A stretch of DNA of 64,000 bases from Salvelinus alpinus (taxonomy: Eukaryota > Chordata > Actinopteri > Salmoniformes > Salmonidae): contig NC_092115.1 in assembly GCF_045679555.1 (NCBI RefSeq), forward strand, positions 38,128,728 to 38,192,727, written 5' to 3'. The notes beneath the pieces were generated by a model. That model had not been told where the DNA came from. It worked only from the letters and a program-made list of their open reading frames with translations, and ran no database searches. Of this stretch, positions 16,112-44,994 are shown piece by piece (within the stretch, counting starts at the first letter, position 1; each line of letters opens with the position of its first letter). Made by a program: the position numbers and the translations under genes.

Positions 16112-16136
16112 ATGCAAACGCTCCGGGAGGAACAGG
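16112..16136 (+). CDS. Inferred coding exon 1 (start codon)
   Basis: Encodes MQTLREEQ plus the first base of a Gly codon, then a donor (G|gtaatt). Chosen because it supplies a start codon in phase 1, which exon 2 requires, about 800 bp upstream of it. Another ATG at 16093 is in a different frame. The weakest exon of the model; a different upstream exon is possible. Confidence 0.45.
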
Positions 16137-19100
16137 GTAATTTATTAATATATTGCAATTAACTGTATAGGTGACATGTTGCAGTCTGCATTGCTGCCAC
16201 AATTTCAAGCTAGCTACCTTACTAGCTAGCTAGCCAACCACCATCTTTGCCAGTAGTCTCGCGGAAAGGGCTATAACAAAGATGGTTTATTTAGTGGCAA
16301 TACGGACTTTAAATATTTAATTTGATAATTGGTAAAACATTTGGTTGGGTCAAGGTTAAGGTAAGGGTCAGTTATAGATTTTGGCAAGTCGTTTTGCACG
16401 TCAGAACTATAGCCCTTCCCCACTTCTTCAGCCTGAAGCTGAAGCTGGGCCCTGGCTTGAGCCTTGGAACGTGTTTAAACCATAACCAATTTAGTAAAAT
16501 ACCCATATCCAGATAGAACATCATGCATTAGTATAAGAACTCAAGAATATGAGTCATTAGAAATGTTGTGCAACTCAGACAGTAATGTTTTTTTAGTGTA
16601 ATGTGTGTAGCCTAGAGTAATGTGTGTAGTAAATACTGTAACTTCCTCCATAGAATTAGGAATTCTAATAATTTAATAGGATTTCTATGGCTTCCTCGTT
16701 GATCAAGGCTCAGTTTTATTTCCAAAAGGTGTTCCCTCCCACTATTACTCATTATATATCTGACATGGATGGCACTGTTGTTTACACCTGCCTGTATCTA
16801 GAAGAGCTGGAAAGGGGCGTGAACAAGTGCAGAAAGGGTTGGGGCATTATATAAACTACTGCCCAAGTTATAGTAGCTAGCTTGCTTTTTCATTCATGTT
16901 ATCTTTGAATGCACATAATCTTCTCTTCTAGGTCTTCCTCTGTCGTCTCTGCGTCTTTTTGTTCCGCCCCTGCGGCTGGTGTGTGCTGCTCTGTGGCAGG
17001 TGATCGAGCGGAGAGACATCATGGACTATGGGCTGCTGGAGGAGTTTGCCACCACCGTGTTGGAAATAGTCCCTGAGCTGATGAGTTACAGAGAGAGGGT
17101 CCAACTTCTCATGGGACTAAGAGCACGGGTGAGTGGGGGTGACGAGGGAAAGACGTAGAAGTTGCCGCTAGGCACAGATCTAGGATCAGTGTACCGTCAA
17201 ATCTGAACCTTTTTTGAAGGAAACGCAAGATTTACCTTAGATAAGTATCTCGGGGAAACCTCAACCTACTTCAACATTAAACTCAACGATCACATACACA
17301 CCTGTTGCCATGAATACTCAATTCTCATTTTATTGACAGCTGGTCCTAGAGTTATGTCGCTGTGATGATGAGTTGTGTCGCCCTGACACCGTTCAGCCAC
17401 ACCTGAACAGGATGAGGAGCTGTATCTCCAATCATAAGGGAGAGGTGAGGACTACTCAGAGGAGGAACCGTGATTCTAATGGCTCAGTTGGTTGGAGTGT
17501 TGTCCTTGTAACATGGAACACAGTGCTTATAATGTGGGTTTTATTCCCACATTCGCCTCAAAATACTAAGTATACAGTATGTAAGGCTGTAAGTATATTT
17601 GCTAAATGGCATTATGGATGAACATTGTAAAGGATTAACCTATGTTGCTAACCAATGGTTAGTTATATTTATCCACTGTGCATTCTTGCTGCAGGTTTCA
17701 GATCCAAATGTGGAAGCATCAGAGGCGAACTTCACGAAGCTGATTGAAACCCTAATGGAGGAGCCAAAGGAGAGGGACCTCTTCTTCCAGGTCAGTGGCT
17801 GTGTCCCAATACCCATACTTGCATTCTAAATAGTAGGCATTTTGGGTATGCGAAAATAGTACGATTTATAGGTTGATTCCGTGTAAAAGTTCATCTTGAG
17901 CATGCACAAATAAAGTTAATTTCCAAATGAAACCATGTCATAATTATCCTTGAAGTCAATATGTTGGAGTTCAGGCTCTATTTGATACGTTTTTAAGTAG
18001 GAAATTGCATGAATTCTGACCGTTACACAGTAGTCAAAGGCTTTTCAGACAATCATATTTCATGGTTTTTAGACAGGGCTCACTGAGCTTGTTTTTCCAC
18101 TCACAGCTGTCTCCCAGTATTAGTATCAAAAGATGAGATGTTAATGAAAAACAATCCAAACCAAGTTGAAGTGTCTTGAATTTTGTTTGCATGTTCTACA
18201 GTCTTGTAAAGATAGGGGGGTGAATGGGACAGGCAAAGTTACATTCATGACTTTTTTTTAGGTTAAAAGTTTTTGTAAAACATGCACCTTTCATCGGATC
18301 TTGAAACTTAATCAGTATAGCTAACGTTCATCAAGGTTTTATATGGTCTATAAATGTACTTGAGTCCAGATTTTCATGACTTGTGACTCGACCGTTAGTG
18401 ACGTGGACTCGCCTTCTCGTGACTTATATTTGCACTTGAACTGAATAGGCTACTATGATAAGCAGAATATTAGCAAAACTGGGTGCGCAGAGCAGCGAGG
18501 GTTCTGTTCTCTGGCAGTGGGAAGGGTGCGGAACACACAGCCTACTTCAGCTGGTGAGCTGCAGCGAAGCAAGCGATGACTGTGGGCAGGCAGGCTCCGC
18601 TCCGCCTCCGATCATATGCTTCACATCACACAAGCGACTCTTGCTTCCCTATCACCAGTCACCAGCCTACTATTTGATTTTGCCTGTATGGCTACCCAAT
18701 ATGCATGGGGTCTATTGTTGCCCCATAGTGACGAAGGACTTGTTTTGATAGCTACGTTGCTCTACGTGGCTACATTAGCATCAACTTAGGGTAGCTACCA
18801 TGAGAGTGTTGATTTCTGTTAAAGGGTAGGTAGCATAAATGTAACATTTGGATTTGCATTAGTATACGCATCAAAAGTCCCAATGCAGTTTGATACAAAT
18901 CAGCTTAAGGTTGCTAGCCAAGTAGCCTGCTATCATTCGCCCTACTAGCCTGATAGCGTTAGCCCTACGAACCTGCTAACGTTAGCACTGCGTGAGTCAG
19001 CCAAGTTGCAATCAACACCTAACTTACACCTTCATTAAAGTAAACCAAAGTTTGCGAAATGCAGCGCTCTAAGGCACTGCATCTCAGTGCCAGAGGCGTC

Positions 19101-22100
19101 ACTACAGACCCTGGTTCGATCCCGGGCTGTATCACAACCTGCCGCGATCGGGGGTCCCATAGGGCGGCGCAAAATTGGCCCAGCGTCGTCCGGGTTAGGG
19201 GAGGGTCTGGCCGGGGTAGGCGTCATTGTAAAATAAGGATTTGTTCTTAACTGACTTGCCTAGTTAAATAAATAAAAAATAAAATCTAACCAGTTATCAA
19301 ATAATGTTACCGGTATATGCAGTTTTCTTAGCCAGCAAGCCAGCCAGCTGAAGTTTATTTTAGCCTGCTAGCTAGCCTAACCAGCTAACTAGCCTAGCTA
19401 ACCAACCACCACGGTCGACATAGCTAAGTAGTAAGCCAGAGAACAACTAGTCTAGCACAGGCAGGGACCCACAGAACACAACAACAACAAAAAAGCCAGC
19501 AGGTAAAAAGTAGAGAGAGGAGACTTCTCAATTGACGACTGAGTTAGCTACCAAGTTAAAGAAGAGCCAAGGAGAGGCCGTTTCACCAGTCGAGGGAGAG
19601 TTAGCTAATCCAATAGCGAAACAGGATGCACCTGAGCTCAATTTCGAGTCTCATAGCAAAGGGTCTGGATAATTATTTAAATAAGGTATTTTTAATTTTA
19701 TTTTTCTAAACCTGTTTTTGGTTTGTCATTATTGGGTATTGTGTGTAGATTGAGGTCATTTAAAAAATGTAATCCATTTTAGAATAATGTAATTTTTGGG
19801 GGGGAAGTCGAGGGGTCTGAATTCTTTCCGAAGGCACTGTAAGAACGGATAAGATTATGATCACGAGTATGACAAGTTCGGCACACCCCTAGTAAAAACT
19901 CATGCTACCTACCCTTTAACGTTACAATGAGGGAAGTAACTAGCTATCTATGAAACCGGTACACAGTGTACTTTGCCCATGAAGTAGCTCGTTATTTTCC
20001 AGTTGTTGACAAACAGTTTTCCATAACAGCTAAATAGCTTCTTTTAGTCGTTTGTCACCATGGACCTCGTGTGAATTTGGTAGTATGATCATGGGATACC
20101 CAATTCACACAGGGTCCATTGTTAACAAGGACGTAACGTTAACAGAAGTCCAATCTCTTGTGGTAGCTACTCATAGTTGACACTTGCCAAGCCACGTAGA
20201 GCCTGACATGACCAAAGCTATGTGGACAACTGCTCGTCGAACATCTCATTGCAAAATCATGGGCATTAATATGAAGTAGGTCCCCCCTTTTGCTGCTATA
20301 ACAGCTTCCACTCTTCCGGGAAGGCTTTCCACTTGATGTTGGAACATTGCTGCAGGGATTTGCTTCCACTCAGCCACAAAAGGTCGGACACTGATGTTGG
20401 GCGTTTAGGCCTTGCTCGCAGTCGGTATTCCAATTCATCCCAAAGGTGTTTTTTGGGGTTGAGGTCAGGGCTATGTGCAGAACAGTCAAGTTCTTCCACA
20501 CCGATCTCGACAAACCATATCTGTTTGGACCTCGTTTTAACGAGGGGCATTGTCATGCTGAAACAGGAAAGGGCCTTCGCCAAACTGTTGCCACAAAGTT
20601 GGAAGCACAGAATCGTCTAGAATGTCATTGTATGCTGTAACATTAAGATTTCCCTTCACAGGAACTAAGAGACCTTGCCTGAACCATGAAAAGAGCCCCA
20701 GACCATTATTCAATTTCCACCAAACGTTACAGTTGGCACTATGCATTGGGGCAGGTAGCGTTCTCCTGGCATCCACCAAACCCAGATTCATCCATCTGAC
20801 TGCCAGATGGTGAGGTGTGATTCATCACTCCAGAGAACGCGTTTCTACTGCTCCGGAGTCCAATGGCAGAAAGCCTTACACTTCTCCAACCGACGCTTGG
20901 CATTGGGCATGGTGATCTTTGGCTTGTGTGCGGCTTCTCGGCCATGGAAACCCATTTTGTGATGTTCTTGATGAATAGTTAAGTGCTGATGTTGCTTCCA
21001 TAGGCAATTTGGAACTCGGTAGTGAGTGTTGCAACTGAGGACAGACGATTTTTACGCTCAACACGCTTCAGCAATCGGCGGTCCCGTTCTGTGAGCTTGT
21101 GTGGCCTACCACTTCGCGGCTGAGCTGTTGTTGCTCCTAGACATTTCCACTTCAAAATAACAGCACTTACAGTTGACCGGGGCAGCTCTAGCAGGGCAAA
21201 ACATGTTACAAACTGATTTGTTGGAAAGGTGGCATCCTATGACTGTGCCACATTGAAAGTCACTGAGTGCTTCAGTAAAGCCATTCTACAGCCAATGTTT
21301 GTCTATGGAGATTGCATGGTTGTGTGCTCGATTTTATACGTCTGTCAGCAATAGGTGTGGCTGAAATAGCCAAATCCACTAATACTTATGTATATATAGT
21401 GTAGCTATCAAAACAACGTCATTCGTCACAATGGGGCTGATGGAATGAACCCAGTGCTCATTGGGTAGCCACACCTGATTAAGAAACACAAACTGCTTTA
21501 CGAAATTGAAAACAATAGTATTGAGTTAAATTGTTAAACAACAGTCTAGCTATTTGTCTCTCTCCTAGAGTATAAAAAAGTATTTAAATTTGTCATGTCT
21601 CTCTACCCTCTCAATTTCCCCCCTGCATCCCATAGCCAGGTTTCTTCTGATAAGTCTCCCTTTAGTTTTCACTCTGCAATAAAAAAAAAACATCCACAAA
21701 TATCAGTGGGCGATTACAAAAACGTAGCTGAGAAGCTGTTACAATTATTGCAAATAATAATCTCATCAATCTGACAGGAGCAATAGCCAACACTTATTCG
21801 TTTCATAGGCTATTGCATATTGCAGGCAATTATGACCATTGGGCAGGGAGAAAAATCTTTGCATTACTCTAATTCTCACATGAAAATCTTCCCGCCAGTC
21901 GTTGTTGCTAGGCGGATTTATTCGACCAAATCCGAGCCTAGCAACTCTGAATCATTTGTTTTGCTTTCAAACGTTTTTCAGCAGATGTTGCAAAGTGGGT
22001 GGCAGAATGTCAAATATGTAACAGAAAAATAGAAGAGAAGCTTCAAAACTCAGACCTACTGACTCAGACTTGAGCACTTGGACTCGGAGTCAAGGTTTAG

Positions 22101-25100
22101 TGACTCGACTACAAGACTTTATGATATCCGTAACATGTGGAAGTAATGGATATTGTTGTATCATATCTTGGCTTCAGAAGCTTGTGCATTCACCACATTT
22201 TGTGTGCTTGTTCTGGGATGTATTCTTCATACTTTTACCGACTAAATTGCTTATCTTAAAATTGTGTGTGTTAGCTAAGATTCTCTTGGAAAATATATGC
22301 TGAAATGCATTTCTCATACAGTTTTTTTTTTTTTTTAGATAAAAAGATGAGAAGAGTGTTTATCAACAATCTGTGAATAGTCCTGGAGTGTCTTTTTCAA
22401 TTGAAAGACCCCAAAATATACTGACTTCATCCAGTCTCCAGAAAAGTGGATTGGCAGTATAGGCACACATACAGTGCAGTGCATTCGGAAAGTATTCAGA
22501 CCCCTTGACTTTTTCCACATTTTGTTACATTACAGCCTTATTCTAAAATAGATTAAATAAAAATAATCTTCATCAATCTACACACAATACCCCATAATGA
22601 CAAAGCAAAATGTATTTAATAAAAAAACTGATTTTTTACGAGTATTCTGGCACACAATCCTGTCTCGGAGCTCTACGGACAATTCCTTCGACCTCATGGC
22701 TTGGTTTTTGCTCTGACATACACTGTCAACTGTGGGACCTTATATAGACAGGTCTGTGCCTTTCCAAATCATGTCCAATCAATTGAATTTACCACAGGTG
22801 GACTCCAATCATGTTGTAGAAACATCTCAAGGATGACCAATGGAAACAGGATGCACCTGAGCTCAATTTCGAGTCTCATAGCAAAATGTCTGACTACTTA
22901 TGTAAATATGGAATTTCTAAAAACCTGTTTTCTGCTTTGTTATTATTGTGTGGAGATTGCTGAGGGAAAATGTATTTAATCCATTTTAAAATAAGGCTGG
23001 AACGTATCAAAATGTGTAACAAGTCAAGGGGTCTGAATTCTTTCTGAATGCACTGTACATTGAAAGTAATCAAAATCAAATCAAATGTTATTTGTCACAT
23101 ACACATGGTTAGCAGATGTTAATGCGAGTGTAGCATAATGCTTGTGCTTCTAGTCTCAAGTAGCCTATTATTTGCATTTGTCACTATGACAAACACACAC
23201 AGAAAGCACAGAATGGTCTTGTTACCACTTGTATTAATAGTAGGATGCGTTGATCAGTTGATCGACAGGTGTAGGGACTATAGAACAATAAACTGTAAAC
23301 TTTCCTCTAGTGTGGATGCTCACAAACATTTTATAGTTAGGCTATGTAGCGTATAGTTTATCGTTACACTTACACTTGTTTACTTTTATGCTCTATAAAT
23401 TGACTCCTTCGAATAATTTACTACAGCAAGTTTGCCACCGCGCATCGTATCCATCACTTCTTTTGTTTGGCTGTGCCCATAGCAACGTTAGAAAATGAGG
23501 CGGATACTATTCAGGCAACCTATAATTATGCGATTCTAAAGTACTGTGCCTTCTGCTGACATTTTAAAAACATTCCAAATGACAACAAATGTTATGATAG
23601 ATTTTGATCAAGAAATCTATAAGATTTGAATGTCTATTTTAGACTCTTAACGTCTATAATGGAGGGTGTAACATCGTATGATGCCGGCAATTCTTAGTTA
23701 ATGGAAATCACAATCTTTTCAAAATTATCGCTTTTTATGTTCAGCCAAGCCTTTCCTTCGAAATGGCAATCCATGTTTTGACTTATGACTTACAAACTCA
23801 GACTTTTCCTAATACAGTCACCTGTATTAGGAAAGATGAGCCAGAAAAACTGTATAATATAAAAACAGACCTATATTGTATGCAGAAACAGGTGAAAATT
23901 ATATTGTTTTATTCTAATACAATTGCTCATTTCGTTTTTTCAAAAAGTTAGGTGTCAACATTTTTGGCACCCCTAAAGATTCTTTTAAATAAAATCAAAC
24001 TAAATAAAATCTGCATTAACATTCTACTTTTTAAAGTTAATCTCACCTTAAGGAACTGTGTTGTGGCCTTCCATGGCTCCCTGTTTTACTGTGGTATAAA
24101 AAATTAGGTAACAGGTAAAATCTCTTTGTCATCCATCACCATGGGGAAAGGCATAGAACTCACAAACAAAAAGAGGGTGTTGACCTTCATAAATCAGGCA
24201 ATGGGTTCATTTACCACTATTAGGGCAACAATTAAAGGGATAGTGACATTGGTTTCCTTACCTTGTCCATAGTCTGCTTACAGGGTAAATAGCATGATCA
24301 TTACACAGGTGAACCTTCTGCTGGCGACAAAAGGCAACTCTAAAATGTGCAGTTTTGTCACAACACAATGCTACAGATGTCTCAAGTTGAGGGAGCATGC
24401 AATTGACATACTGACTGCATGAATGTCCACCAGAGCTGTTGCCAGATAATTTAATGTTAATTTCTCTACCATAAGCCTACCAATGTCATTTTATGTCATC
24501 TACCAATGTCATTTTAGAGAATTTGGCAGTACGTTCAACCGGCCTTACAACCGCAGACCACATATAACCACGCCATCCCAGGAACTCCACATCCGGCTTC
24601 TTCACCTGCGGGATCATCTGAGACCAGCCACCCAGAAAGCTTATTAAACTGTGGGTTTGCACATCCAAAGAATTTCTGCCAAACTGTCAGATACGAACTC
24701 AGGGAAACTAATCTGCGTGCTCTATATATATATTTCTGTTTAATATAATTTGACCACATTTGTTACGATAATAATCCATATAAAGTACAGTAAATTGTCA
24801 AATTAGAGGGATGTGTGAAACCGTTGTTGAAATACTATAAAAGACTGAGATAATGGGAAATCGAATGGGAGATGGCTGATCTTGCTCTGTTGGAAAATGT
24901 GGCACATGCTGCATTTAGCAGAGAGTGTGTTTTTAGGAGGGTATCATTTCCCAAAATATCATTTCCCAAAGCCAATATTATTGGATTTATGCCAAGATTT
25001 AATACCTACTTTAGAAAGGCAAACAAAGAAAACGCATGCCATTCCGGTGCACATCCAAGTGCTATTCTCTAGTTTTTGGAAACAGCATTTTTCAGCTGGA

Positions 25101-28100
25101 GCTTGCCATTGGTTTGGCATCTCACAACCCTAGATGAGTCGATTCATGCCAGCTGTTTTGGATTGAATCATCAGCAAGGGCTACAGTTGCATCCAGTTAC
25201 CACCGTCGCACAAAAGGTTGAAGTCAAGAGGGGTTTGTTTGCCATCAACGGTTTCTGAAATACCATCACAGCAATAGATGATACCCACGTCTCGATAAAA
25301 GCACCATCCCAAAACGGGTTCAACTATGAACAGAAAAGTTTTCCGCTCAATGGATGTCATATGTGATGCTCAAAAGACGCTACTGAATGTGGTGGCCAGG
25401 TGGAACACACGACTCGCTCGTTCTGCAGAACAGCAATGTTGGCCTTCGCTTACAGGAGGGAGCTGTTGAGGATGGATGGCTTATTGGTGAGTGCCTACTC
25501 GTTTGAAGTATATTTGACATTGCTAAAGCAACTTGATTTGTCCTAATGGTTCTCTCTCTTTGTAGGACACAGAAGTTATCTGTTAAAACCCTGGCTGATG
25601 ACAAGGGTGGGAAATTAACTTTTTGGTCCACCAGCCACTGTGGCAGGTATATGAAAAAAATCTACCAGCTACTCAGATTTCTTTTTTATCAGCCGAAATT
25701 TGTTTTTCTGTAATTACACCAACAAAATCACAAAAACATGGATGAGCACACTTTCTAATGTTTCAAAGACAATACATGTACTAAAAGGAAGAAGTAATGG
25801 GGTATATTGCTTCATTTCATTTTATGACTTGCGTCTTTTAACCAATGTATGTTAAAAGAAATCATTTATATCCAATAATAAAAACAAGAACATCAAGAAC
25901 GTCTACAACTGAACATCAAGAACCAACAAAGTGCCCTGCCACAAAATGCTGAGTGATACGACTAATTTATTATTATAGTTCAGGGCTCTACGCTGACATT
26001 TTTCACAAGGAGTACATGATGTGATCCTAAGTAGAAATGTAGAAGCACACAAATAAATCTAGGAGAACAATGACTAAATGTTAATGAATATTTTTGTTTT
26101 GGTAGTGATCCATTCTCAATCAAGCACAATCATTAGATGAGACCAAAATGTTCAGCTTACCCCTTAAGGAACAGGCTGCTACTGTGGTAACTTGGCAAGT
26201 CAGTTAAGAACAAATTCTTATTTTCAATGATGGCCTAGGAACAGTGGGTTAACTGCCTTGTTCAGGGGCAGAACAACAGATTTTTACCTTGTCAGCTCAG
26301 GGATTCAATCTTGCAACCTTTCGGTTACTAGTCCAACGCTCTATCCACTAGGCTACTTGCCGCCTCGATATTGACCTGAAAAGGCTTTGCCATATTGTAA
26401 TGGCTTGCAGGGTGCTCCAAAATATGTCCATCAAGCCTGGCCTCCCTCTACAGCAGGTGGACCGACCTGACGACCCTATGCCTGATGCACAAATAGAATT
26501 TTATAGCCGAAGGAATTATTTAAAAGGCGCATACGTGAATGTAGTTTAGATCATTTGATTTGCACATGTGACCTGTTGCTTTAGTGAATCATTTATGTTA
26601 TTTAATGCCTTCCTCAATTGATTGTTTATTTCAAGGATGGAGTTATTGATGTCGTCTTGTTTTTTCAGGACCGCGTCAGTCAGTACCGTTGGCTCCCGAC
26701 TTGATGTGGCACGAGTTGACTTCCCCTGGTTGGCACTGTCACCAGTTCCCCTGGGTGGCACGGTGACTGGATCTCTGCCAGTCACTATCCGCAATAGATG
26801 TTCTTTTGTGTGTATTAATGACTTGTCGTGTTATTGTTTGATTCGTTTTGTTCCGAATCATTAGCCTACAATTATTTGTTTTAAACACAGGACAACGAAA
26901 AAACGACTTGTTTTCAATATCGTGATAAATAAATATGAATTGAATGAAATTGATATGCTGTATCCTTACCTTCAACCTGAACTTGCGATGGCCTTGAGTC
27001 AGACACCGGGCTGGGGGTCACTGTCACCCCCCAGTAGTATCCCTTACAGTAGTGGTTCTAACCAGTGGTACTAGGAGCCCTGGGGGTACTTGGTCAATCC
27101 ACAGGGGTACTTGAGAAGACTCATGAGACCATAGGCCTACTGGTAAAATGCACATGAGGGGGTACTTCAGGGGTACTCCGGGCAGAGCAAAATTCAGTTG
27201 GTGGTACAGTAACCAAAAAAGGTTGGGAACCACTGCCGTATGATGCCGGCAATTCTTAGTTCTAGAGGAGAGAGGCTCATCTCACTCAAATAACATTTTA
27301 TTTGTCACACGCGCTGAATACAACAGGTGTAGCCCTTACAGTGAAATACTTACTTACAAGCCCTTAACCAACAATGCAGTTTTAAGAAAAATACCTAAAA
27401 AATTTTTGAAATAAAAGTAACAAATAATGAAAGAGCAGCAGTAAAATAACAATAGCGAGGCTATATACAGGGAGTACCGGTACAGAGTCAATGTGCGGGG
27501 GTACCGGTTAGTCTAGGTAATGGAGTAATATGTACATGTCGGTAGAGTTATTAAAGTGACTATGCATAGATAATAACAGAGAGTAGCAGCAGTGTAGAGG
27601 AGGGGGCGGGCAGTGGAAATCGTCTGGGCAGCCATTTTGATTAGATGTTCAGGAGTCTTATGGCTTGGGGGTAGAAGCTGTTTAGAAGCCTCTTGGACCT
27701 AGACTTGGCGCTCCGGTACAGCTTGCTGTGCGGTAGCAGAGAACAGTCTATGACTAGGGTGGCTGGAGTCTTTGAAAATTTTAGGGCCTTCCTCTGACAC
27801 CGCCTGGTATAGAGGTCCTGGATGGCAGGAAGCTTGGCCCCAGTGATGATCTGGGCCATACGCACTACCTGCTGTAGGGCCTTGTGGTCGGTGGCTGAGC
27901 AGTTTCCATACCAGGCACTGATGCAACCCGTCAGGATGCTCTCGATGGTGCAGCTGTAGAACCTTTTTACGTTCTCTGCCACCCTCCAGTTGCACCAATG
28001 TCCTGTCTGTGAACTATTAGTGCCTTTTTGGCATTTAACTTAAGATCAAACCACTTTACTTTATCTCCACCACTGACCGGCATTCTGAAGAGGCAGCATT

Positions 28101-31100
28101 CACTGCAATTCCTACTTTCTCCCACACTATGTTTGTATTTTTACTGGTCAAGCCACAACTGAGCGAGCCAAGTAAAATGTTTTGGTTGCACTCAACCTCT
28201 GACACTAGCACCTTTTATTACAGTCTCGGATCAACAACAACAAAAATATTTTCCTTTTGTGGTTGAGCCATTGTATTTCATGGTACGGGGTTGTATCTTC
28301 GCGACGGGCTAGAAAGGGATGATTTTCATCATATATGGTTAACTATGGGCGTTTCAAAATGCAAATAGCAAGGCTGTGCACAAGCACTGGGGCTGAAAAC
28401 AATGGTGATCGACCACCTGTGTGTGTGTATGACGCTCGTAGGATTGTTTGATAAATCACTATGCATACGAACATTCTAAATTCCTTCCGTATGTATTATT
28501 TTAGAATAGTTACGACGTAATATTGATAAATGAATCCCCTGGAGTTTGCTAAATGGCATTGGCACTTGGAATGAAACTGGTGCGAGCTTCACATTCTACC
28601 TGGTCACCTCAATCAAAACGTCCCATTTTTGGGGCGGATAAATCCATGAATTTGATCAACAGTAAATGACATTATCCACATGATTCCCTGCCGCTGTGCC
28701 TTCCTGTTTCGCTGCAGCCGGCTGCTGTAATGAGTGAGTTCTGAAATGTTCTCACACTCTCCCTGCCCCTCGTGAGTGTATAACATTTCAAAATGCAATT
28801 ACGGGGGTAAAAAACTACTTTGGAAACAACTAGTTGTCCATATTCAAGAGAGGATGGTCAGCTTTCTGTAGTTATAACTTTGTATTTCTCAACGATCATT
28901 ATTGAGCTCAAAGCACACTGTTTTACCATCAAGATATCTGATATAGCTTTGAAATCCAAAGCGTGCAAAATGAAGCATCGGCCATCGCGAGTGCACTAGG
29001 CCTCATTGCTAAGTGTTTTTAGTACATTGCATTTACACTTGCGAAATGCACTCATTAAAAATAACCTCTGTGATCTCCATCTCGCTAGTTCATCTTTTTT
29101 ATTTTATTCAAGCGGATAAGGTAGTGATGTAGGCCGTGACGTGGCCACAATTGAAACCAGAACCTAGTCATTGTTGCCTAGGGTCAGGTGTTCAAAAATG
29201 TAGTATATTTTAAAACACCAGGATGTCATACTCATTGCGGCTTTTCGTCTAGTAGAATTTGCCGCACACGATTGAGGAAGATAATCAAGATAAGGTGATG
29301 CGCTGTACCAAAATTAACCAACGGCAGGAATCAACTCAATCGAACATTAGATGAGGTATTATCAGTATGAATAAGCCTGGTATGTTGATATTTGTTGCTT
29401 ACTGCATTCGTTTTTACGTAGGAGTACATTCTAATTAGCATGTAGTATGATTAGTACACAGTATATCGTTTTAGTAAGTAGTAGGCGAGACAGATTTTGG
29501 ACACGGCCAGTGTCAAAATATGCTGGGGAAAAGTGAAATGATTGCATTTCATTGCTTCCTGTTCCAATCTGGTGCCAGTGAGCCATTCATTTCAATGGAA
29601 CTCGTTTTTTTCCCATGAATAGCAAACCAATAACCATATTTCTAGGCTTGTGTTATAGAGACATAATTGATGTATGTACTTTTGACTGTCATCTGCTTGC
29701 CCTGTATTTTAGAATGTTTTTCCAGAGGAGTTTGGCCCCAAGTATGACTCAACACTGCAGATTCTTGTGTGGGAGTTCCTGTCCAGACTGGAGAAACTGC
29801 TTCCTGCTCCAAACATTAAACAGGTATTATTTTACTGTACATCATTTGAGGTATGCATTACGGATGGGCATTTGAAAGAATTTCTGTGTTTGAGTACTCA
29901 AGTACTTAAATGTCAGCGTGAAAGGGGGATGAATGCAAAACGTTTATGGTATGCTATCGGTTGCTACAATTTCTGGTTGTTCTGATACAACTGAAAACGA
30001 AATGTAACATTTTCACTGCACTTGACATATATCCCACAAATAATGAACACGTCTTAGAGTTTGAAATGTTGTCAGTGGTTTTAATGTAACCTGCTACTTA
30101 ATAGAATTTGTACATGTATGATTAGCAATCAAATACAAACCTTGAATCGAGTGCTTGCGCACCATACCTAGTATGCATGCGGATCTCAAGTAATTATTTG
30201 GCCCAAAGTGCCTTTGATTCCAGTCAAGACCTTGAAACGCCATTTTTACTTTCTCCACCTCTTAGACTGCATCGTGGCTCAACCTTGCCCCTGCTCTCTT
30301 AGAGGAGTGTGTGCAGTCTGTGGCTCACCCTGAGCCATTACAGGCACTCCTCCATCACCATAAAAATGGAAAACAGTTAGACACCAATGGTAGGTGGGGT
30401 ACAGGATTTGTAAATAATTGACTTGCCTGAATTTCTATATTTATGGGTAGAAATTAGGAAATGCAGGAAATGAAGGAAAAAGTTATCATTGATCTCAATA
30501 GTTATTCCTGATGTTTACTCGTGATGCTCTCCTTGTTTCTAGCTCTAAGGTCGACTGGTGGTGACTACATCCTCTCTTCACTGTCTTCCCCTTCCTCTGT
30601 GAAGGAAGAAAGTGCCTCTTACCAAGCTGGCCCAGAGAGACAGTCCTATCCCACCATGCAGGGATATCAAAGCCCTTTCCCATGTGATGAACCAGAGATG
30701 AGTTGGGACTGCCGAATGGCAGATTGTAGGGTCTGGACTGTAAAGCCACCAGCCGGTTCTGCTTCTGTGGAGGTAGAGGTCGAGACTATAGAGGACGCCA
30801 CTGATATAATGGTTAAACGCAAGACAATCGACAAAGAGTCGATAAAAGAGACGAGGAGAGAAGAAGCTGTTTTCTGCCCTCAGACACGCAGCGGACTGAA
30901 AACCAGCCGCTTGACAGCTGCCTGTCTGCGCCGTCAGCCTGTACTGCGTTTGAACAGGCTTGACATTAGCAATATGCCATTACCCAAGTCCTTGCTAACA
31001 CTGATTCTAAGGAGAGGGAGACTGCAGGCTGAGGTGACAAGACGCCCAGGACCGAAAAGAAGAGGCAGAAAGAAGAAACGGAGACGAGGACGGGGTGTTG

Positions 31101-34100
31101 CAAACGAGAAGATTGAAACAGACACACTTGACGTGAGCGATATGCCGCTACCCAAGTCATCACTAACGCTGACTCTAAAGAGAGGGATAGTGCAGGCTGA
31201 GGCGACGAGTTCCCAAGTACCGAAGAAAAGAGGCAGAAAGAAAGGACAGAAAATAGGACCTGGTATCACAAGATTAAAGATTGAAAATGTTGGAGTACAT
31301 ACGCTTGACATTAGCGATATGTCATTACCCAAGACCTCGCTAAAGCTGATCATACGGAGAAGGAAACTGCAGGCTGAGGCAACGGACAGAAAAGAAGGAC
31401 AGAAAAGAAGAGGCAGAAAGAAAAAATGGAGAAGAGGACGTGATGTCAGAAATGAGAAGACTGAAGCAAAGGGTGTGAAAAGAGAGCGGTCACCTGAAAC
31501 TGAGTGAGTGTCAGCTGTGGAACAGACGTATTCAAATCCAGGCCTCAAGGTCTGCAGTGCTGCTGGTTTTCTTTTCTCCCAGGTAGTAAATTGATTTATT
31601 AATATAATTGATTGACCAGAGAATACAGTCACCTAGTGTACAGAGAGGACTGAATCGGTCCCTGATTCGAGGGGTATTAGGGGATGGATGAAAACCAACA
31701 GTGGTGCAGACTTCAAAACCCAGATTTGAAGGCCCCTACAGTATTGGCTACCCAGCAAACCAAAAGTGGTTCTATGAAAGTTCCCAGAATATTTGTTAGG
31801 TTGCCACAAATGTTCTCATAACACAAAAACTGTCCAGTTATACTGATGATTATACAATGTTTGTATAAAATATTTGCCTGCTGTTGCAAGAACGTTCCCA
31901 GAACGTTGCTCATATATTTTGCTGCCGCACTATGTTCTGAAAAACATTACTGGTACATTTTGTTATTACATAACCTGGAGAACGTTTGGGGAATGTTCTG
32001 TGGTGGTTGTTACAGATTTTGTGCACAACATTTTAGTGAATGTTAGGACATTCCAAGGATATTTCATTTAAAACGTTTTCTGAACAAACAAACAAAAACT
32101 GTTATGAAAAACAGTATTTGAATGTTTTTGGAATGTTAACCTAATGTTATATAAAAAACCCTAGCTTATGTTCTGGGAATGTTCTCAGTTTGCTGGGTAG
32201 GACCTTGGCAATGAACTCGAATATTGAAAATCATAACTGACTTTAATTTTGGACTCTTCTCAGGGAAGATGCCGAACCATCAGATAATGAACTTTGGACC
32301 ACTGTCAATAAAGGGGCCACTGTCGATGAGTCTGGTAAGAAAAGTTCCTTAGTGAGTGTAGAGCAGTGAACGTCCAGCTCCTTAGATATACACAACTCCT
32401 GAATAAAGAAGAAGAAACTAGAAATGACACGCTTAAAGATGCAAAGAAAGTGGTTACTAGACCTAAATGTCCATGATATTCTGCTGTGAGAATAGCTAAG
32501 TGCTTATCATTCCATTGCGAGTTCAGTAAACACTTTCTCTGCATCTATAAGGCTGCAGTACCTTGTTCTTTATTTTAGGAAAGTTCTGTATCCCTTCACT
32601 TTATTGAGCTTTGTTCAAATGTGGTCTATTCTATTTTTATCAAGCACCAGATCTGTCTTACTTGTGCTCTTTGACTTTGATTGAGTTCATGTCAATATGG
32701 AGATGTCTTGCTCACTTCTGTCTTTTCAACACTAGGTGGGGTCCGTGCTTCTCCTCATTGTCCATCATCTCATAAGAGGGAGGAGGAATTGCAACAGCCC
32801 ATACAGCACTTTCACTCAGAGGAGCACGGGGGTCATATGGCCAAAGGGCAGAACAGAGAAGAACACTCAGAGAGTGTACCTCAGGACTCTCAAACTCTTG
32901 AGCCATCCAACAGCTCTCACAAAAGAAGCTTTCGCTCAGAGGAGCACAGAGGTCATATGGCAGAAGGGCAGAACAGAGAAGAATGCTCAGTTAGTGTACC
33001 TCAGGACTCTCTAACTCCTGAGCCATCCAACAGCTCTCACAAAAGAAGCTTTCGCTCAGAGGAGCACAGAGGTCATATGGCAGAAGGGCAGAACAGAGAA
33101 GAATGCTCAGTTAGTGTACCTCAGGACTCTCTAACTCCTGAGCCATCCAACAGCTCTCACAAAAGAAGCTTTCGTTCAGAGGAGCACAGAGGTCATATGG
33201 CAGAAGAGCAGAACAGAAAAGAACGCTCAGTTAGTGTACCTCAGGACTCTCTAACTCCTGAGCCATCCAACAGCTCTCACAAAAGAAGCCAACGCGTCAA
33301 AGCATGCTCTTTCTGTGGCAAGACTTTCACTGACACACTGGGCTTGACAAGACACATGCGATCTCACATTGAGCAGATGTCACATCAATGCACCCAGTGT
33401 GGGCAAGAGTTTGAATTCAGTGAGGACTTAGAGGAACACCAGAAGCATGGCTGTGAGGAAATGAACAAAAAGGATAATAGTGAGGAAAATGGTGATGACT
33501 ACTGTGGGAGAACTGTACAGCAAAAACCTGATCTGAAAAAAAAAACTGATCTAAAAAGAGACAAAAAACCTGATCTAAAAAGAGACAAAAAACCTGATCT
33601 GAAAGGAGACAAAAAACCTGATCTGAAAGGAGACAAAAAACCTGATCTGAAAGGAGACAAGAGACCTGATCTGAAAGGAGACAAGAAACCTGATCTGAAA
33701 GGAGACAAGAAACCTGATCTGAAAGGAGACAAGAAACCTGATCTGAAAGGAGACAAGAAACCTGATCTGAAAGGAGACAAGAAACCTGATCTGAAAGGAG
33801 ACAAGAAACCTGATCTGAAAGGAGACAAGAAACCTGATCTGGAAGGAGACAAGAAACCTGATCTGGAAGGAGACAAGAAACCTGATCTGGAAGGAGACAA
33901 ACAACCTGATCTGAAAGGAGACAAACAACCTGATCTGGGAGGAGACAAACAACCTGATCTGAAAGGAGACAAACAACCTGATCTGAAAGGAGACAAACAA
34001 CCTGATCTGGGAGGAGACAAACAACCTGATCTGGAAGGAGACAAACAACCTGATCTGAAAGGAGACAAACAACCTGATCTGAAAGGAGACCTAAAACAAC

Positions 34101-35479
34101 ATGTAAAAGGAGACACACAAGACTGCTCCATAAAGTGCCATGTGTGTGGGAAAATAACTACTCGTATGCTGGGTTTGCGAAGACACCTTCTACTTCACTT
34201 CAACAATGGAGCATACAAGTGCTCTGCGTGTCCAAAGACTTTTATATCAAATGCTGATTTGAGATCGCACCTGAGATCAAAAAGATCTTGTAGGGAGAAA
34301 TGTTCTGATGAAGTAATTACTACCGGGCTCCACCTCAAATCTGTCCCTGGTGAGTACAAGTGTCCTTACTGTGGGGACACTTTCCAGCTCCCAGATGATC
34401 TGAGAGGACACACAAAAGACTGTTCCAGAAAGTGCCATGTGTGTGGGAAAACTACTGCTCGAATGCTGGATATGCGAAGGCACATGTTAAAACACAACAA
34501 CAATGGCCCATACAAGTGCCCGGTGTGTCCAAGGACTTTTATATCCCATACTGATTTGAAGATGCACCTAAAAACAAAAAAACTTTGTAGGGAGAAATGT
34601 TCTGATGTAATGATGAATGAATTACTTTCTTCAGGAGATGGTAAATGTAGGGAAAATGTCAATGAAACAGGAGTCATGACAAGGTGCCAACAACCAAGCT
34701 CTAACAACATAGCCAGGCCTTTGAAGAGCATTGAAGAGTTCTTTGAAGAATTCTCTCATGACTTGCAGCAATCCGATAACAGCATAAGTAGTGAAGTGAA
34801 CCTGAATAGCCTGAATAGCCTCGATGAAGACTACAGTGACGAGATCAGTCAATACCAACCCATGAAGGATGTTGACCTGAATAGCCTCCATGAAGACTCC
34901 ATAATGACCACTGAAGACTACAGTGACGAGATCAGTCAATACCAACCCATTAAGGATGTTGACTTGAATAGCCTCCATGAAGACTACAGTCAGGCAGAGA
35001 TCAGTCAATACCAACCCGTTAAGGATGTTGACTTGAATAGCCTCCATGAAGACTACAGTCAGGCAGAGATCAGTCAATACCAACCCGTTAAGGATGTTGA
35101 CTTGAATACCCTCCATGAAGACTACAGTCAGGCAGAGATCAGTCAATACCAACCCGTTAAGGATGTTGACTTGAATACCCTCCATGAAGACTACAGTCAG
35201 GCAGAGATCAGTCAATACCAACCCGTTAAGGACGTTGACCCAGAGGAGGACAGAAGGTCTGTGGATGATTCAGGGGGAAATGAGATGGCCAATGACAAAG
35301 AACCAAACTCAACCGAATGCTTAACAGAGGAGCAGGTGTCACACACTGAGGCATGCCCTCTCCAGGATTCTCAATCAGAGACAAGCGGAGAAGTGAAGAA
35401 CGAGATACAGGTGATACCGGTATCAACAATAGATACGACAATACTAAAGGCACTCCAATTTGAGGTTTTAAGAAAATGA
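16112..35479 (+). CDS. TINF2_N-domain, multi-zinc-finger protein (nine inferred exons)
   Basis: Joining the nine exons below gives 4,434 nt, i.e. 1,477 codons plus stop, with every intron phase consistent (1,0,0,0,0,1,2,1). Residues about 9-210 resemble the TIN2 (TINF2) N-terminal domain: GLRARLVLEL matches the TIN2 region after its YRHHERL stretch, and [19 protein letters not shown] with LSRLEKLLP matches the TIN2 helix before its linker. Residues about 359-540 hold three basic repeats. About 590-750 is a 40-residue repeat (x4), 754-1180 seven zinc fingers around an eight-residue repeat array, and 1250-1400 a 23-residue acidic repeat (x6). TIN2 itself is a shelterin scaffold without zinc fingers, so this is a fusion or a separate fish family. 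No clear TRF1-binding FxLxP motif was found. Nuclear, nucleic-acid-binding role inferred. Confidence 0.75.
16932..17128 (+). CDS. Exon 2, TINF2_N domain part 1
   Basis: Acceptor ctcttctag, donor cgg|gtgagt, 197 nt, phases 1 to 0. Encodes [15 protein letters not shown], then [20 protein letters not shown] and [18 protein letters not shown]. The WQV...YR(E/H)R...MGL(R/K)A(R/K) pattern is what ties the protein to the TIN2 N-terminal domain. Confidence 0.85.
17340..17444 (+). CDS. Exon 3, TINF2_N domain part 2
   Basis: Acceptor ttgacag, donor gag|gtgagg, 105 nt, phase 0 at both ends. Encodes [16 protein letters not shown] followed by [23 protein letters not shown] continues the MGLRAR of exon 2, as GLKAKVVVEL does in TIN2. 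Confidence 0.85.
17485..17620 (+). repeat. tRNA-derived SINE relic in intron 3
   Basis: A-box-like tggctcagttggttggag, a perfect T-arm-like stem around gtgggttttattcccac, and a tail with tatatttgctaaatggcat. Resembles the HpaI-type SINEs elsewhere in the window. Confidence 0.65.
17695..17790 (+). CDS. Exon 4, TINF2_N domain part 3
   Basis: Acceptor ttgctgcag, donor cag|gtcagt, 96 nt, phase 0 at both ends. Encodes [20 protein letters not shown] and [12 protein letters not shown], corresponding to the DPKATKQDLRKIL region of TIN2. It is followed by the roughly 12-kb intron 4. Confidence 0.83.
17791..19058. other. Intron 4, first part: no gene seen
   Basis: Apart from a stretch near 18365-18425 (gtgactcgac ... 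ggactcg) that is weakly inverted relative to 22058-22112 (cttggactcggagtc ... tgactcgactac), nothing recognisable. Those two stretches could be ends of an old DNA transposon. Confidence 0.4.
19059..19290 (+). repeat. SINE with tRNA-Leu-like head (SlmI-like)
   Basis: Head gcgctctaaggcactgcat and B box ggttcgatcccgggc, body cccatagggcggcgcaaaat, tail gatttgttcttaactgacttgcctagttaaataaa. The tRNA-Leu-like head fits the salmonid SlmI family; the name is from memory. Confidence 0.8.
19291..19621. other. No gene seen
   Basis: Rich in ctagctaa/agccagcc motifs, common in non-coding salmonid DNA. Confidence 0.4.
19622..19839. mobile_element. Tc1-like element, family D, right-end fragment
   Basis: Shares aggatgcacctgagctcaat and the terminal ggggtctgaattctttccg with the complete non-autonomous copy at 22472-23055; ends aaggcactg before TA. 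Confidence 0.75.
19840..20216. other. No gene seen
   Basis: No recognisable feature. Confidence 0.4.
20217..21410 (-). pseudogene. Tc1-like element, family E, with dead transposase
   Basis: Reverse-strand transposase pieces in several frames: [16 protein letters not shown] (near 20790), LFQHDNAPR containing the second catalytic Asp (near 20540), and [18 protein letters not shown] (near 20450). There the expected catalytic Glu in NPIE is Lys. Frames change repeatedly. The right terminus near 21390-21410 reads ttatgtatatatagtgta; the left terminus is truncated. Confidence 0.8.
21411..22471. other. No gene seen in intron
   Basis: Contains a poly-T run at 22321-22337. No coding signal. Confidence 0.4.
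22472..23055. mobile_element. Tc1-like element, family D, non-autonomous full length
   Basis: Between TA dinucleotides; left end cagtgcagtgcattcggaaa then gtattcagacccc, right end ggggtctgaattctttctg then aatgcactg. 584 bp, so most of the transposase is deleted. Confidence 0.88.
23066..23155 (-). repeat. Dispersed retroelement tail fragment
   Basis: caaatgttatttgtcacat ... gcagatgttaatgcgagtg, the same repeat as 14178-14253. Confidence 0.55.
23156..23941. other. No gene seen
   Basis: Includes the first copy (23675-23699) of a 25-bp exact direct repeat whose second copy is at 27237-27261. A palindromic stretch ttcctaatacag...ctgtattaggaa lies at 23805-23833. Confidence 0.45.
23942..24240 (+). 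mobile_element. Tc1-like element 5' fragment
   Basis: Subterminal ggtgtcaacatttttggcac, then leader tggcctt-ccatggctccctg, and a start-like [13 protein letters not shown] at 24141. Only the first part of a transposase is present. Confidence 0.5.
24268..24715 (+). mobile_element. Tc1-like element fragment, family C, N-terminal part
   Basis: Contains gcatgatcattacacaggtg, gagggagcatgcaattgac and gagaatttggcagtacgttc, the family C transposase N-terminal region on the plus strand. A local 20-bp duplication (ctaccaatgtcatttta) is present near 24477-24515. Confidence 0.65.
24872..26545 (+). pseudogene. PIF/Harbinger transposase relic
   Basis: Plus-strand pieces recall HARBI1-type nucleases. [20 protein letters not shown] (about 25275-25330) corresponds to the DxIHVxIKAP motif with the first catalytic Asp. 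It is followed by NGCHM and, after 25555, [13 protein letters not shown], and by [15 protein letters not shown] near 26396-26440, matching the C-terminal ACCVLHNI region. Frames change and a SINE is inserted at 26197-26372, so the gene is dead. A companion protein fragment lies downstream on the opposite strand. Confidence 0.7.
26197..26372 (-). repeat. tRNA-derived SINE, reverse orientation
   Basis: In plus orientation: gcaagtcagttaagaacaaa (tail), gcagttaacccactgttcc in reverse, and the head aacctttcggttactagtcc/ctaggctacttgccgcc. Head and B box are on the minus strand. Shares its tail with the SINE at 19059. Confidence 0.82.
26546..26797 (-). pseudogene. Possible Harbinger-associated Myb/SANT-like protein, C-terminal piece
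   Basis: A minus-strand frame ends with [19 protein letters not shown] and LKQQV, a hydrophilic coiled-coil-like tail. Divergent arrangement beside the nuclease relic is how Harbinger elements carry their second (Myb-like) gene. Assignment rests on context; the SANT domain itself was not identified. Confidence 0.4.
27048..27236. mobile_element. hAT-type MITE
   Basis: Starts cagtagtggttctaaccag, ends ggttgggaaccactg; the inverted ends share gtggttc(c/t)(c/t)aacc. No clean 8-bp duplication found. It abuts the second copy of the 25-bp direct repeat at 27237. Confidence 0.7.
27290..28005 (-). mobile_element. LINE 3' end (clade not assigned)
   Basis: Reverse-strand frame at 27641-27982 encodes the C-terminus of a non-LTR ORF2: [49 protein letters not shown] and [12 protein letters not shown]. 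Its 3' UTR follows to about 27290 (aggctatatacaggg, gtacatgtcggtag). 5'-truncated. A second copy of the same 3' end is at 51102-51495. Confidence 0.85.
28006..29712. other. Intron 4, last part: no gene seen
   Basis: Only a small Tc1-like scrap (28547-28590, gtttgctaaatggcattgg) is recognisable; its relative is the fragment at 48357-48744. Confidence 0.45.
29713..29823 (+). CDS. Exon 5, TINF2_N domain part 4
   Basis: Acceptor ctgtattttag, donor cag|gtatta, 111 nt, phase 0 at both ends. Encodes [31 protein letters not shown] and APNIKQ. This is the segment most like TIN2 (EQEYGEPF ... FEYLCQLEKALPTP). Confidence 0.88.
30266..30389 (+). CDS. Exon 6, end of TINF2_N domain
   Basis: Acceptor cacctcttag, donor aatg|gtaggt, 124 nt, phases 0 to 1. 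Encodes [20 protein letters not shown] and [17 protein letters not shown] falls where TIN2 has LSWMQ. Confidence 0.8.
30543..31503 (+). CDS. Exon 7, three basic AT-hook-like repeats
   Basis: Acceptor ttgtttctag, donor actga|gtgagt, 961 nt, phases 1 to 2. After about 140 residues of Ser/Glu-rich linker come three repeats starting at 30959, 31127 and 31304. Each reads LD(I/V)S(D/N)M(P/S)LPK(S/T) and is followed by a basic patch ([38 protein letters not shown]). The RGRK cores resemble AT-hooks but lack the canonical RGRP. The last repeat is the point where the downstream duplication begins. Confidence 0.85.
31533..31733. mobile_element. MITE in intron 7
   Basis: Ends form a terminal inverted repeat of about 40 bp: caaatccaggcctcaagg + tctgcagtgctgctggttttc against gaaaaccaacagtggtgcag + acccagatttgaaggcc. 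Copied with the gene duplication to about 36520-36690, where the right end is truncated. Confidence 0.75.
31748..32200. mobile_element. Second MITE in intron 7
   Basis: Begins ctacccagcaaac and ends gtttgctgggtag, a perfect 13-bp inverted repeat; the interior has repeated gttcccagaa/ttctgggaa motifs. The duplicate gene copy has a different inverted-repeat insertion at the same place. Confidence 0.75.
32264..32334 (+). CDS. Exon 8
   Basis: Acceptor cttctcag, donor tctg|gtaaga, 71 nt, phases 2 to 1. Encodes [15 protein letters not shown] and NKGATVDES, an acidic linker. Repeated nearly unchanged as 37233-37303. Confidence 0.85.
32736..35479 (+). CDS. Exon 9, seven zinc fingers and three repeat arrays
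   Basis: Acceptor caacactag, 2,744 nt, ends TGA at 35477-35479. The frame is open upstream to 32681, but that part is intron and the phase from exon 8 fixes the junction. Fingers by first Cys: CSFC...H-x3-H (C2H2), CTQC...H-x4-C, then after the array CHVC (C2H2), CSAC...H-x6-C, CPYC...H-x3-C, CHVC (C2H2), CPVC...H-x6-C. C2H2 and C2HC types thus intermix. All have the 12-residue Cys-His spacing. The region before finger 1 has four 40-residue repeats; the C-terminus has six acidic SQYQP...LHEDY repeats. Confidence 0.9.
32810..33289 (+). repeat. 120-bp coding tandem repeat, four units
   Basis: Period 120 bp (40 residues: F(H/R)[16 protein letters not shown] ... SNSSHKRS). Units 2 and 3 are almost identical. 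The duplicate gene copy has only one unit. Confidence 0.95.
33545..34096 (+). repeat. 24-bp coding tandem repeat, 23 units
   Basis: Twenty-one units of (K/Q/R)PDL(K/E/G)GDK beginning at 33593, spaced exactly 24 bp, preceded by two KRD-type units. Ten KGD units are followed by three EGD units and then a Q-type mixture, showing stepwise expansion. The repeat is open in all minus-strand frames, which creates long false antisense frames. Absent from the duplicate copy. Likely a flexible charged linker between fingers 2 and 3. Confidence 0.97.
34795..35230 (+). repeat. 69-bp coding tandem repeat, six units
   Basis: Units of 72, 87 and 4 x 69 bp encode variants of [20 protein letters not shown] followed by PVK. 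The last four are almost identical. Acidic, Gln/Tyr-containing; could be an activation-type or interaction tail (inference). Confidence 0.93.
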
Positions 35480-35675: not shown

Positions 35676-36347
35676 GGAAGGCAAATGGAGCACCAACATG
35701 TTGCTGTAAGCGAGTGAGTTCCATCTCACCCTCTCTCTGTTACACAACCCTTGGCACTGAAGTCAACCGTGCTGACAGACGGAGCTTGTTACTCAATGAG
35801 AAATAGTTGCCGTGAGATCTCGGCGCGGGTGACATCACCCCATGACGGCTACCAATTCCAGCCTGCTAGTTCCACATCCACTACACTCACTCCCTAGTAG
35901 TCTGCTACAGCCGATTTGTAATCTCGAGTCACGGCACCATTGTACCAGAGTGAGTTCTGTCCCCACCTGGGGGGCAAACTCAGCGTTGCCTTTGGACTGG
36001 GCTGAAATGACATTACTTTTTTTGTTTGTTTTTGTTTTTACTTAATGTAAAAATGTGACAACTATATCATTCCCCTTTCTCTCCCTCGCTATCATTAATT
36101 ATCCACTTTTATAACACTTTTATAACACGTTAATATCATGTGATGTCACTGTATACTGTAAGTTACTTTGGATAAGTGTCTACGCCGTCTAGTATTATCT
36201 ATCTAGTATTATCTACATGTTTATCCACCTTGTTTTGAAGTTTTACATAGGTGTGATACATTTAAATTCATTAAAGAAAACATATGAAAAGGCATGGCTT
36301 TGAGTCAGACTGTGCATTTTTATGACTATCATATATATTGTATACAG
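35676..36347. other. 3' flank of the gene; ancestral end of the duplicated unit
   Basis: 36020-36347 (gtgacaactatatcattccc ... gtgtgatacatttaa ... tgcatttttatgactatc) is repeated at 47160-47726, showing that the duplicated unit ends here. Its last bases, ttgtatacag, now form a splice acceptor for exon 7'. Confidence 0.7.
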
Positions 36348-36490
36348 AGAGGGAAACTGCAGGCTGAGGCCACGGGATCCCAAGGACAGAAAAGAAGAGG
36401 CAGAAAGAGAAAACAGAAAAGAGGACGTGGTGTCAGAAATGAGAAGACCGAGGCAAAGAGTGTGAAAAGAGAGCACTCACCTGAAACTGA
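36348..36490 (+). CDS. Exon 7' (truncated copy of exon 7 with a new acceptor)
   Basis: Starts after tatacag and ends actga|gtgagt. Encodes [20 protein letters not shown] then [18 protein letters not shown], i.e. the last third of the third basic repeat. The acceptor comes from unit-end sequence and has a weak pyrimidine tract, so use of this exon is uncertain. Confidence 0.5.

Positions 36491-43393: not shown

Positions 43394-44994
<1,601 letters not shown>

What the first reader, a model, noticed from the sequence alone, without database searches (positions are those of the whole stretch)
16112..35479. TIN2-like N-terminal domain fused to AT-hook-like repeats and seven zinc fingers
Seen: nine exons with fully consistent phases join a region whose spaced motifs match the TIN2 N-terminus ([19 protein letters not shown]...[10 protein letters not shown]) to three RGRK-type basic repeats and seven C2H2/C2HC fingers in a predicted 1,477-residue protein. 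Known: TIN2 is a shelterin hub that works through protein partners and has no fingers. Inference: this fish protein could link shelterin-like contacts directly to DNA or RNA, or be a distinct zinc-finger family that shares the domain.
Basis: partly seen in the sequence, partly recalled or inferred. Interest (0 to 1): 0.8.

Follow-up and report, generated by a model that had tools for sequence, protein, structure and literature searches.

The report
TIN2-derived zinc-finger gene in charr
This is a real fish gene in which a protein-docking domain related to that of the chromosome-end protein TIN2 is joined to zinc fingers, one of a large and apparently undescribed fish gene family.

Summary

A 12-exon model (16112-42700) reproduces, letter for letter, a deposited Salvelinus alpinus protein of 2,169 aa with 17 fingers and four RGRK blocks.

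It is not TIN2. In a bootstrapped tree two other genes of this genome join fish TIN2 (98/88), while the window gene lies in a separate clade (99/99) with TINF2_N zinc-finger and Myb/MADF proteins. That family occurs across teleosts; this genome has about 60 first-exon matches (hand count). I found no paper describing it (open-licence library).

Most likely it works like other accessory-domain zinc-finger proteins: fingers bind nucleic acid, the TIN2-type domain docks a partner. That mechanism is inferred. AT-hooks are not supported.

The parts
16112..16136 (+). exon 1, first coding exon (aa 1-9)
   Evidence: exact match of the 12-exon translation to P0122
16932..17128 (+). exon 2; TINF2_N begins at 16994
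17340..17444 (+). exon 3 (TINF2_N)
   Evidence: splice sites kept in the C23 copy
17695..17790 (+). exon 4 (TINF2_N)
   Evidence: weak TINF2_N match alone
29713..29823 (+). exon 5; TINF2_N ends at 29823; holds the W-E pair aligned with human TIN2 F152-E153
30266..30389 (+). exon 6
30543..31503 (+). exon 7: linker and three RGRK-type basic repeats
32264..32334 (+). exon 8
32736..35410 (+). exon 9: seven fingers (33305-34588) and a coding 24-bp minisatellite; donor at 35410|gtgata in the long form
   Evidence: same ending in P0131, P0132, P0138
36348..36490 (+). exon 10: fourth RGRK block (second module)
37233..37303 (+). exon 11 (copy of exon 8)
40770..42700 (+). exon 12: ten further fingers (40979-42295) and the stop of the 2,169-aa form

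Best explanation
The gene is a paralogue, not an orthologue, of tinf2. A tinf2-like duplicate kept the TIN2-type TRFH-like domain and carries C2H2/C2HC finger exons behind it. In teleosts this gave a large family in which the TIN2-type domain plays the part that KRAB, SCAN, ZAD or FiNZ play elsewhere: an N-terminal accessory domain on a zinc-finger protein. In this member three to four basic RGRK blocks and 7 or 17 fingers, set in pairs or triplets, bind nucleic acid at chosen sites. The all-helical N-terminal domain docks a partner that carries a short peptide motif, as human TIN2 does with TPP1 and TRF2. Shown here: gene structure, domain identity, predicted fold, paralogy, purifying selection on the domain, partly conserved finger contact residues. 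Inferred: the direction of the change (tinf2 duplicate gaining fingers), nucleic-acid binding, the partner, and a role in gene or chromatin regulation rather than in the shelterin core.
Against: No RNA, binding or localisation data could be obtained. The fingers are not a TGEKP-linked array, and 10 of 17 end in C rather than H, so DNA binding by all of them is not assured; Pfam jaz and zf-met matches allow RNA or protein binding. Many family rows differ at the W-E pair (145 of 207 have W, 112 of 207 have E), so the partner may have changed in the family. Finger contact residues are not all conserved: finger 1 differs (DLGR/DLDR), fingers 5-7 differ between S. alpinus and Esox, S. trutta has FEDD in finger 2, and the ohnologue-like P0139 differs in fingers 1, 3 and 4. 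No ray-finned fish outside teleosts and no tetrapod outside mammals was in the trees, so the age and direction of the fusion are not settled.
Confidence: 0.6

Rival explanations
1. A telomere protein: the TIN2-type domain still binds TPP1 or TRF2 and the fingers tie that contact directly to telomeric or subtelomeric DNA, adding a DNA-bound bridge to fish shelterin.
For: TIN2 fold. W-E pair as in fish TIN2. [quoted passage not shown] Zinc-finger proteins at telomeres exist (ZNF524, ZBTB48; abstract starts in the listing). The lack of FxLxP here is weak evidence against it, since the fish TIN2 rows lack it too.
Against: Better tinf2 candidates present twice. About 60 first-exon matches argue for a general zinc-finger family. 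No [FY]xLxP in P0122. No TTAGGG-binding test.
Confidence: 0.14
2. A repeat-silencing factor of the KRAB-ZNF/FiNZ kind: the fingers bind transposons and the TIN2-type domain recruits heterochromatin machinery.
For: Large clustered family. FiNZ-ZNF knockdown derepresses transposons in zebrafish (PMC10547256, passages and Discussion). Transposon remains around the gene.
Against: This copy is rather conserved: TINF2_N is 86% identical to Esox and the contact residues of fingers 2-4 are the same. Fingers are not in a long tandem array.
Confidence: 0.14
3. An RNA-binding or protein-binding zinc-finger scaffold: fingers in pairs with long spacers bind double-stranded RNA or proteins.
For: Pfam zf-met and zf-C2H2_jaz matches; paired fingers, 10 of 17 of C2HC type.
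Against: Plain zf-C2H2 scores higher; Pfam matches between C2H2 classes overlap.
Confidence: 0.08
4. Two neighbouring genes (a TINF2_N gene and a zinc-finger gene) joined by mistake.
For: A 12-kb intron lies between exons 4 and 5. A TINF2_N-only form is deposited for S. namaycush (P0231). The deposited full-length forms are predictions.
Against: TINF2_N itself spans the 12-kb intron. TINF2_N, RGRK blocks and fingers in one protein are deposited for several salmonids and Esox. The C23 copy keeps the splice sites.
Confidence: 0.02
5. It is simply the fish TIN2.
For: TINF2_N and a TIN2 fold; linker features of salmonid tinf2 recur in the family.
Against: Two other genes of the genome join fish TIN2 in the tree and the window gene does not; the tail of fish tinf2 is absent here.
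Confidence: 0.02

Closest known systems
Human TIN2 (TINF2), TRFH-like domain, PDB 5xyf
   Different: No [FY]xLxP motif; carries basic repeats and zinc fingers.
Salmonid tinf2 (C31:17.898 Mb and C11:54.030 Mb of the same genome)
   Same: Same domain; linkers with LSLPPSGR, an RRGRKR patch and [QK]PRVLIPRL, features that recur in part in the family.
   Different: The C11 gene has DSEDE plus a YYKTKH..YVPTL tail (not found in the C31 stretch); no finger pattern in six frames of either 8-kb stretch.
KRAB-, SCAN- and ZAD-type zinc-finger families; FiNZ-ZNFs of cyprinids (PMC10547256)
   Same: N-terminal accessory domain on separate exons, fingers at the C-terminal side, many copies in clusters (FiNZ features; KRAB, SCAN and ZAD recalled).
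   Different: The accessory domain is a TIN2-type domain of about 150 aa over several exons; FiNZ is 28 aa in one exon. Fingers here are paired and partly C2HC.
Poz1 (fission yeast shelterin bridge, 5we0/5we1/5xxf; chain identities of 5we0/5we1 recalled)
   Different: 8% identity in that alignment; no fingers (recalled).
ZNF524 and ZBTB48 (telomere-binding zinc-finger proteins)
   Same: Zinc-finger proteins with a telomere link (abstract starts in the listing).
   Different: Not known to carry a TIN2-type domain (recalled); telomere binding not shown for the window protein.

Membership tests
TIN2 / shelterin hub | TINF2_N (TRFH-like) domain | tested here: met
TIN2 / shelterin hub | orthology to tinf2 | tested here: not met
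   window orthologues in the zinc-finger/Myb clade, 99/99; the C31 and C11 genes join fish TIN2, 98/88
TIN2 / shelterin hub | FxLxP TRF-docking motif (relaxed to [FY]xLxP) | tested here: not met
   none in P0122; mammal rows P0300 and P0316 have FNLAP, but 6 of 6 fish TIN2 rows also lack [FY]xLxP behind residue 170, so it does not separate the window gene from fish TIN2; the C31 tinf2 has YLLSP
TIN2 / shelterin hub | C-terminal tail of fish tinf2 (DSEDE, YYKTKH..YVPTL; its likeness to human TIN2L is recalled) | tested here: not met
   absent from P0122; full pattern in P0253 only of 334 proteins, DSEDE in P0253 and P0086; present at C11
TIN2 / shelterin hub | TPP1-binding residues A15, F152, E153 (PMC8262337, passages) | tested here: inconclusive
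   V, W, E in the window, the same three as in 6 of 6 fish TIN2 rows; binding not tested
TIN2 / shelterin hub | binds TPP1, TRF1 and TRF2 at telomeres | not testable with these tools
   needs protein experiments
Zinc-finger proteins with an N-terminal accessory domain | separate N-terminal domain and C-terminal C2H2 fingers in one protein | tested here: met
   P0122 deposited (predicted) with both
Zinc-finger proteins with an N-terminal accessory domain | multi-copy family in clusters | tested here: met
   60 first-exon matches counted by hand among 125 matches, 24 on C11, 10 on C37, 6 on C3; whether each is followed by fingers was not tested
Zinc-finger proteins with an N-terminal accessory domain | long tandem array with TGEKP-type linkers (recalled) | tested here: not met
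   gaps of 3, 6, 7, 23 and 57-415 residues; none of the printed linkers (under 12 residues) is TGEKP
Zinc-finger proteins with an N-terminal accessory domain | sequence-specific DNA binding | not testable with these tools
   needs SELEX or ChIP
FiNZ-ZNF | 28-aa FiNZ domain | not tested
   no FiNZ profile at hand
AT-hook proteins | GRP core (recalled) / Pfam AT_hook | tested here: not met
   blocks read RGRK; no AT_hook at E<=1 in P0122; a short model, so weak evidence

The most novel reading that the evidence does not exclude
Teleosts turned the shelterin hub TIN2 into the accessory domain of a whole zinc-finger family. At least some members, this one included, still dock TPP1- or TRF2-type partners and place them on chosen chromosomal sequences: a DNA-bound extension of shelterin in animals whose TERF1 does not itself bind TTAGGG.
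Probability: 0.14. Interest if true: 0.9.

Novelty: new variant of a known kind. Interest (0 to 1): 0.6.

Why it matters
TIN2 is thought of as a telomere scaffold (recalled). Here its docking domain is the N-terminal module of a teleost zinc-finger family with about 60 first-exon matches in one genome, and the searches made found no paper on it. It gives a new accessory domain to compare with KRAB and FiNZ. [quoted passage not shown] A practical consequence: of 17 fish rows that I had grouped as TIN2 by name or length, 11 fall in the zinc-finger/Myb clade, so fish tinf2 annotation needs care.

Tried and rejected

Literature: searches returned no paper; of the 13 papers none joins TINF2 with fish zinc fingers, by title and term counts; of the 43, 31 and 11 papers were listed and none of those titles treats this. 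The library lacks most subscription journals and all bioRxiv preprints. Papers: PMC10547256 passages and Discussion section; PMC8262337, PMC9943673 and PMC5309834 passages; ZNF524 (PMC10716145) and ZBTB48 (PMC5452029) abstract starts in the search listing only.

Full report
What is there. The window is the stretch C30:38128728-38192727 of a 2.37-Gb genome. Its contig is 47,366,167 bases long, the length listed for the contig of P0122, an uncharacterized Salvelinus alpinus protein, so the window is very probably Arctic charr. Exons 2-6 give one full TINF2_N domain (E 6.8e-49, positions 1-149 of 149), and human TIN2 (PDB 5xyf) is found by plain sequence (E 2.8e-13). Of the single frames, those of exon 2 (E 1.9e-13) and exon 5 (E 6.2e-12) pass the Pfam cut-off alone, that of exon 4 is weak (E 0.0015) and that of exon 3 gives nothing.

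The gene is longer. A translated search of the window with the 1,477-aa product showed a second copy of an RGRK block, of exon 8 and of the finger exon at 36342-42613, without a second TINF2_N. P0122 (2,169 aa) joins both modules. A 12-exon model, 16112-42700, translates to P0122 letter for letter. It holds 17 fingers by pattern (7 C2H2, 10 C2HC) and four RGRK blocks. These are deposited predictions; no RNA was seen here.

Family. One search (residues 1-220 in a 564-aa query) gave 283 proteins, search 2 (residues 1-760 of the 1,477 aa) 295, search 3 (five-row profile, only the 7,997 candidates sharing most words scored) 292; 120 were listed each time. Of the 223 distinct proteins of the first two lists, 193 have at least two fingers by pattern and 22 none; the length limits of the searches favour zinc-finger proteins, so these are not unbiased shares. 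The fish named include bonytongue, eels and relatives, herring, catfish, pike, salmonids and many percomorphs. Besides zinc fingers, some carry Myb/SANT (PF13837) or MADF (PF10545) domains. In a quick tree of 99 TINF2_N domains with mammal TIN2 as outgroup the fish TIN2 rows P0253, P0258, P0259, P0267 and P0268 form a clade (SH-aLRT 100), P0086 lies alone beside them, and the other 79 fish rows form a clade (99) in which the 15 window orthologues (salmonids, Esox, Dallia) are one clade (100). A bootstrapped tree of 58 rows repeats this: 39 zinc-finger/Myb/window rows 99/99, window orthologues 100/100. Long branches and open forks make the inner order unsure, and no fish outside teleosts and no tetrapod outside mammals was included.

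This genome. TINF2_N gives 125 exon matches in G000, a lower bound since 150 of 196 candidates were scored. Counting by hand the matches that start at profile positions 1-9 gives 60 first-exon places, among them the window gene, its C23 copy and two tinf2 genes; pseudogenes were not sorted out. With fish TIN2 (P0253) as query, C31:17.898 Mb and C11:54.030 Mb lead (73-81% identity; next in rank 57%). In the bootstrapped tree both join fish TIN2 (98/88). Neither 8-kb stretch shows a finger pattern in six frames. The C11 gene has DSEDE and an LFMKRYYKTKH..YVPTLREFW tail; the C31 stretch gave no tail hit; the window protein has neither element. The linkers of these genes carry LSLPPSGR, RRGRKR and [QK]PRVLIPRL. 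The pattern QPxVx[ILV]xR[LI] occurs in 32 of 331 family proteins against 0.05 in shuffled sequences, though not in P0122, where QPVLRLNRL stands in the like place. I read this as descent of the family, linker included, from a tinf2 duplicate; the direction is inference.

Selection and conservation. The nearest relative in the genome is on C23 (exon matches 17.857-17.876 Mb; finger exons in the stretch below), presumably the partner from the salmonid genome doubling (recalled). It keeps the donors and acceptors of exons 2-8, with exon 2 longer by six bases at its start and no gap in exons 3-6; exon 1 was too short to be found. Over exons 2-6, dS is 0.175, dN 0.047 and the ratio 0.27 (bootstrap 0.13-0.51). 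Against Esox P0133 the TINF2_N part is 86% identical (217 aligned) and the exon-7 part 79% (321 aligned). The -1/2/3/6 residues of fingers 2-4 are FEDE, RLGR and SADS in charr and Esox; finger 1 is DLGR in charr and DLDR in Esox and Dallia; fingers 5-7 vary; S. trutta has FEDD in finger 2, and the ohnologue-like P0139 has ELGR, FEDE, RVSR, LCDS. So this copy is fairly, not fully, conserved.

Does the docking surface survive? PMC8262337 (passages) reports that TIN2 A15R abolishes TPP1 binding and that F152A or E153A do too. In an alignment of the domains the window has V, W and E there, like 6 of 6 fish TIN2 rows; of 207 other family rows 169 have V, 145 W and 112 E. So this copy has the pair of fish TIN2 while many relatives differ. 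That is suggestive, not proof, of a TPP1-like partner. The TRF-docking motif [FY]xLxP is absent from P0122, but it is also absent behind residue 170 from the six fish TIN2 rows, some of them short isoforms; the C31 tinf2 has YLLSP in its linker.

Mechanism. I think it most likely (0.60) that the protein acts as a zinc-finger adaptor: fingers and basic blocks bind nucleic acid, the TIN2-type domain recruits a peptide-bearing partner, and the output is gene or chromatin regulation. A telomere role (0.14), transposon control (0.14) and RNA or protein scaffolding (0.08) remain open. Only the anatomy, the predicted fold, the paralogy and the selection are shown.

Novelty. Databases already show the domain pairing: Pfam matches are precomputed and UniProt names read 'TERF1-interacting nuclear factor 2 N-terminal domain-containing'. 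I found no paper on it (open-licence library, capped lists), and the main text of the metazoan ZNF survey PMC10547256 holds neither TINF2 nor TERF1. I rate it a new variant of a known kind: accessory-domain zinc-finger proteins, with a TIN2-type accessory domain.

Noticed in passing
33539-34115: Coding 24-bp minisatellite (24 copies, [12 protein letters not shown] octapeptide) inside exon 9; the number of octapeptides by pattern ranges from 0 to 23 among the 21 relatives.
   Followed up: partly
P0008, P0013, P0148-P0154 and others (salmonid paralogues): 25 salmonid paralogues carry [QR]Y[SP]L[AIV]P just before the first finger, a match to the [FY]xLxP pattern by which TIN2 docks TRF1; the window protein lacks it. 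A member that might bind TRF1 or TRF2.
   Followed up: partly
L019 (C31 tinf2), about 4937-4999: The C31 tinf2 linker reads DYLLSPLSLPPSGR, which holds a YxLxP match; the C11 copy reads DSILSSLSLPPSGR.
   Followed up: no
P0011, P0018, P0067, P0162, P0275 and others: TINF2_N also occurs fused to Myb/SANT (PF13837) or MADF (PF10545) domains in teleosts.
   Followed up: no
fish records such as P0229, P0242, P0262, P0284, P0297: Named 'TERF1-interacting nuclear factor 2-like' but placed within the zinc-finger/Myb clade: likely misnamed.
   Followed up: partly
10493-11074 (-), 54794-55867 (-), 44130-44519 (+): Tc1/mariner transposase frames (HTH_Tnp_Tc3_2, Sleeping Beauty HTH or DDE_3 matches); the one at 54794-55867 is open over 358 aa.
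   Followed up: partly
57300-57677 (-), 63331-63693 (-): Retroelement fragments: a weak RVT_1 match (below its cut-off) and an RT_RNaseH match.
   Followed up: no
8763-9108 and 60774-62250: Two long minisatellites: 28 bp x 12.4 copies at 100% match, and 44 bp x 34 copies at 93%.
   Followed up: no
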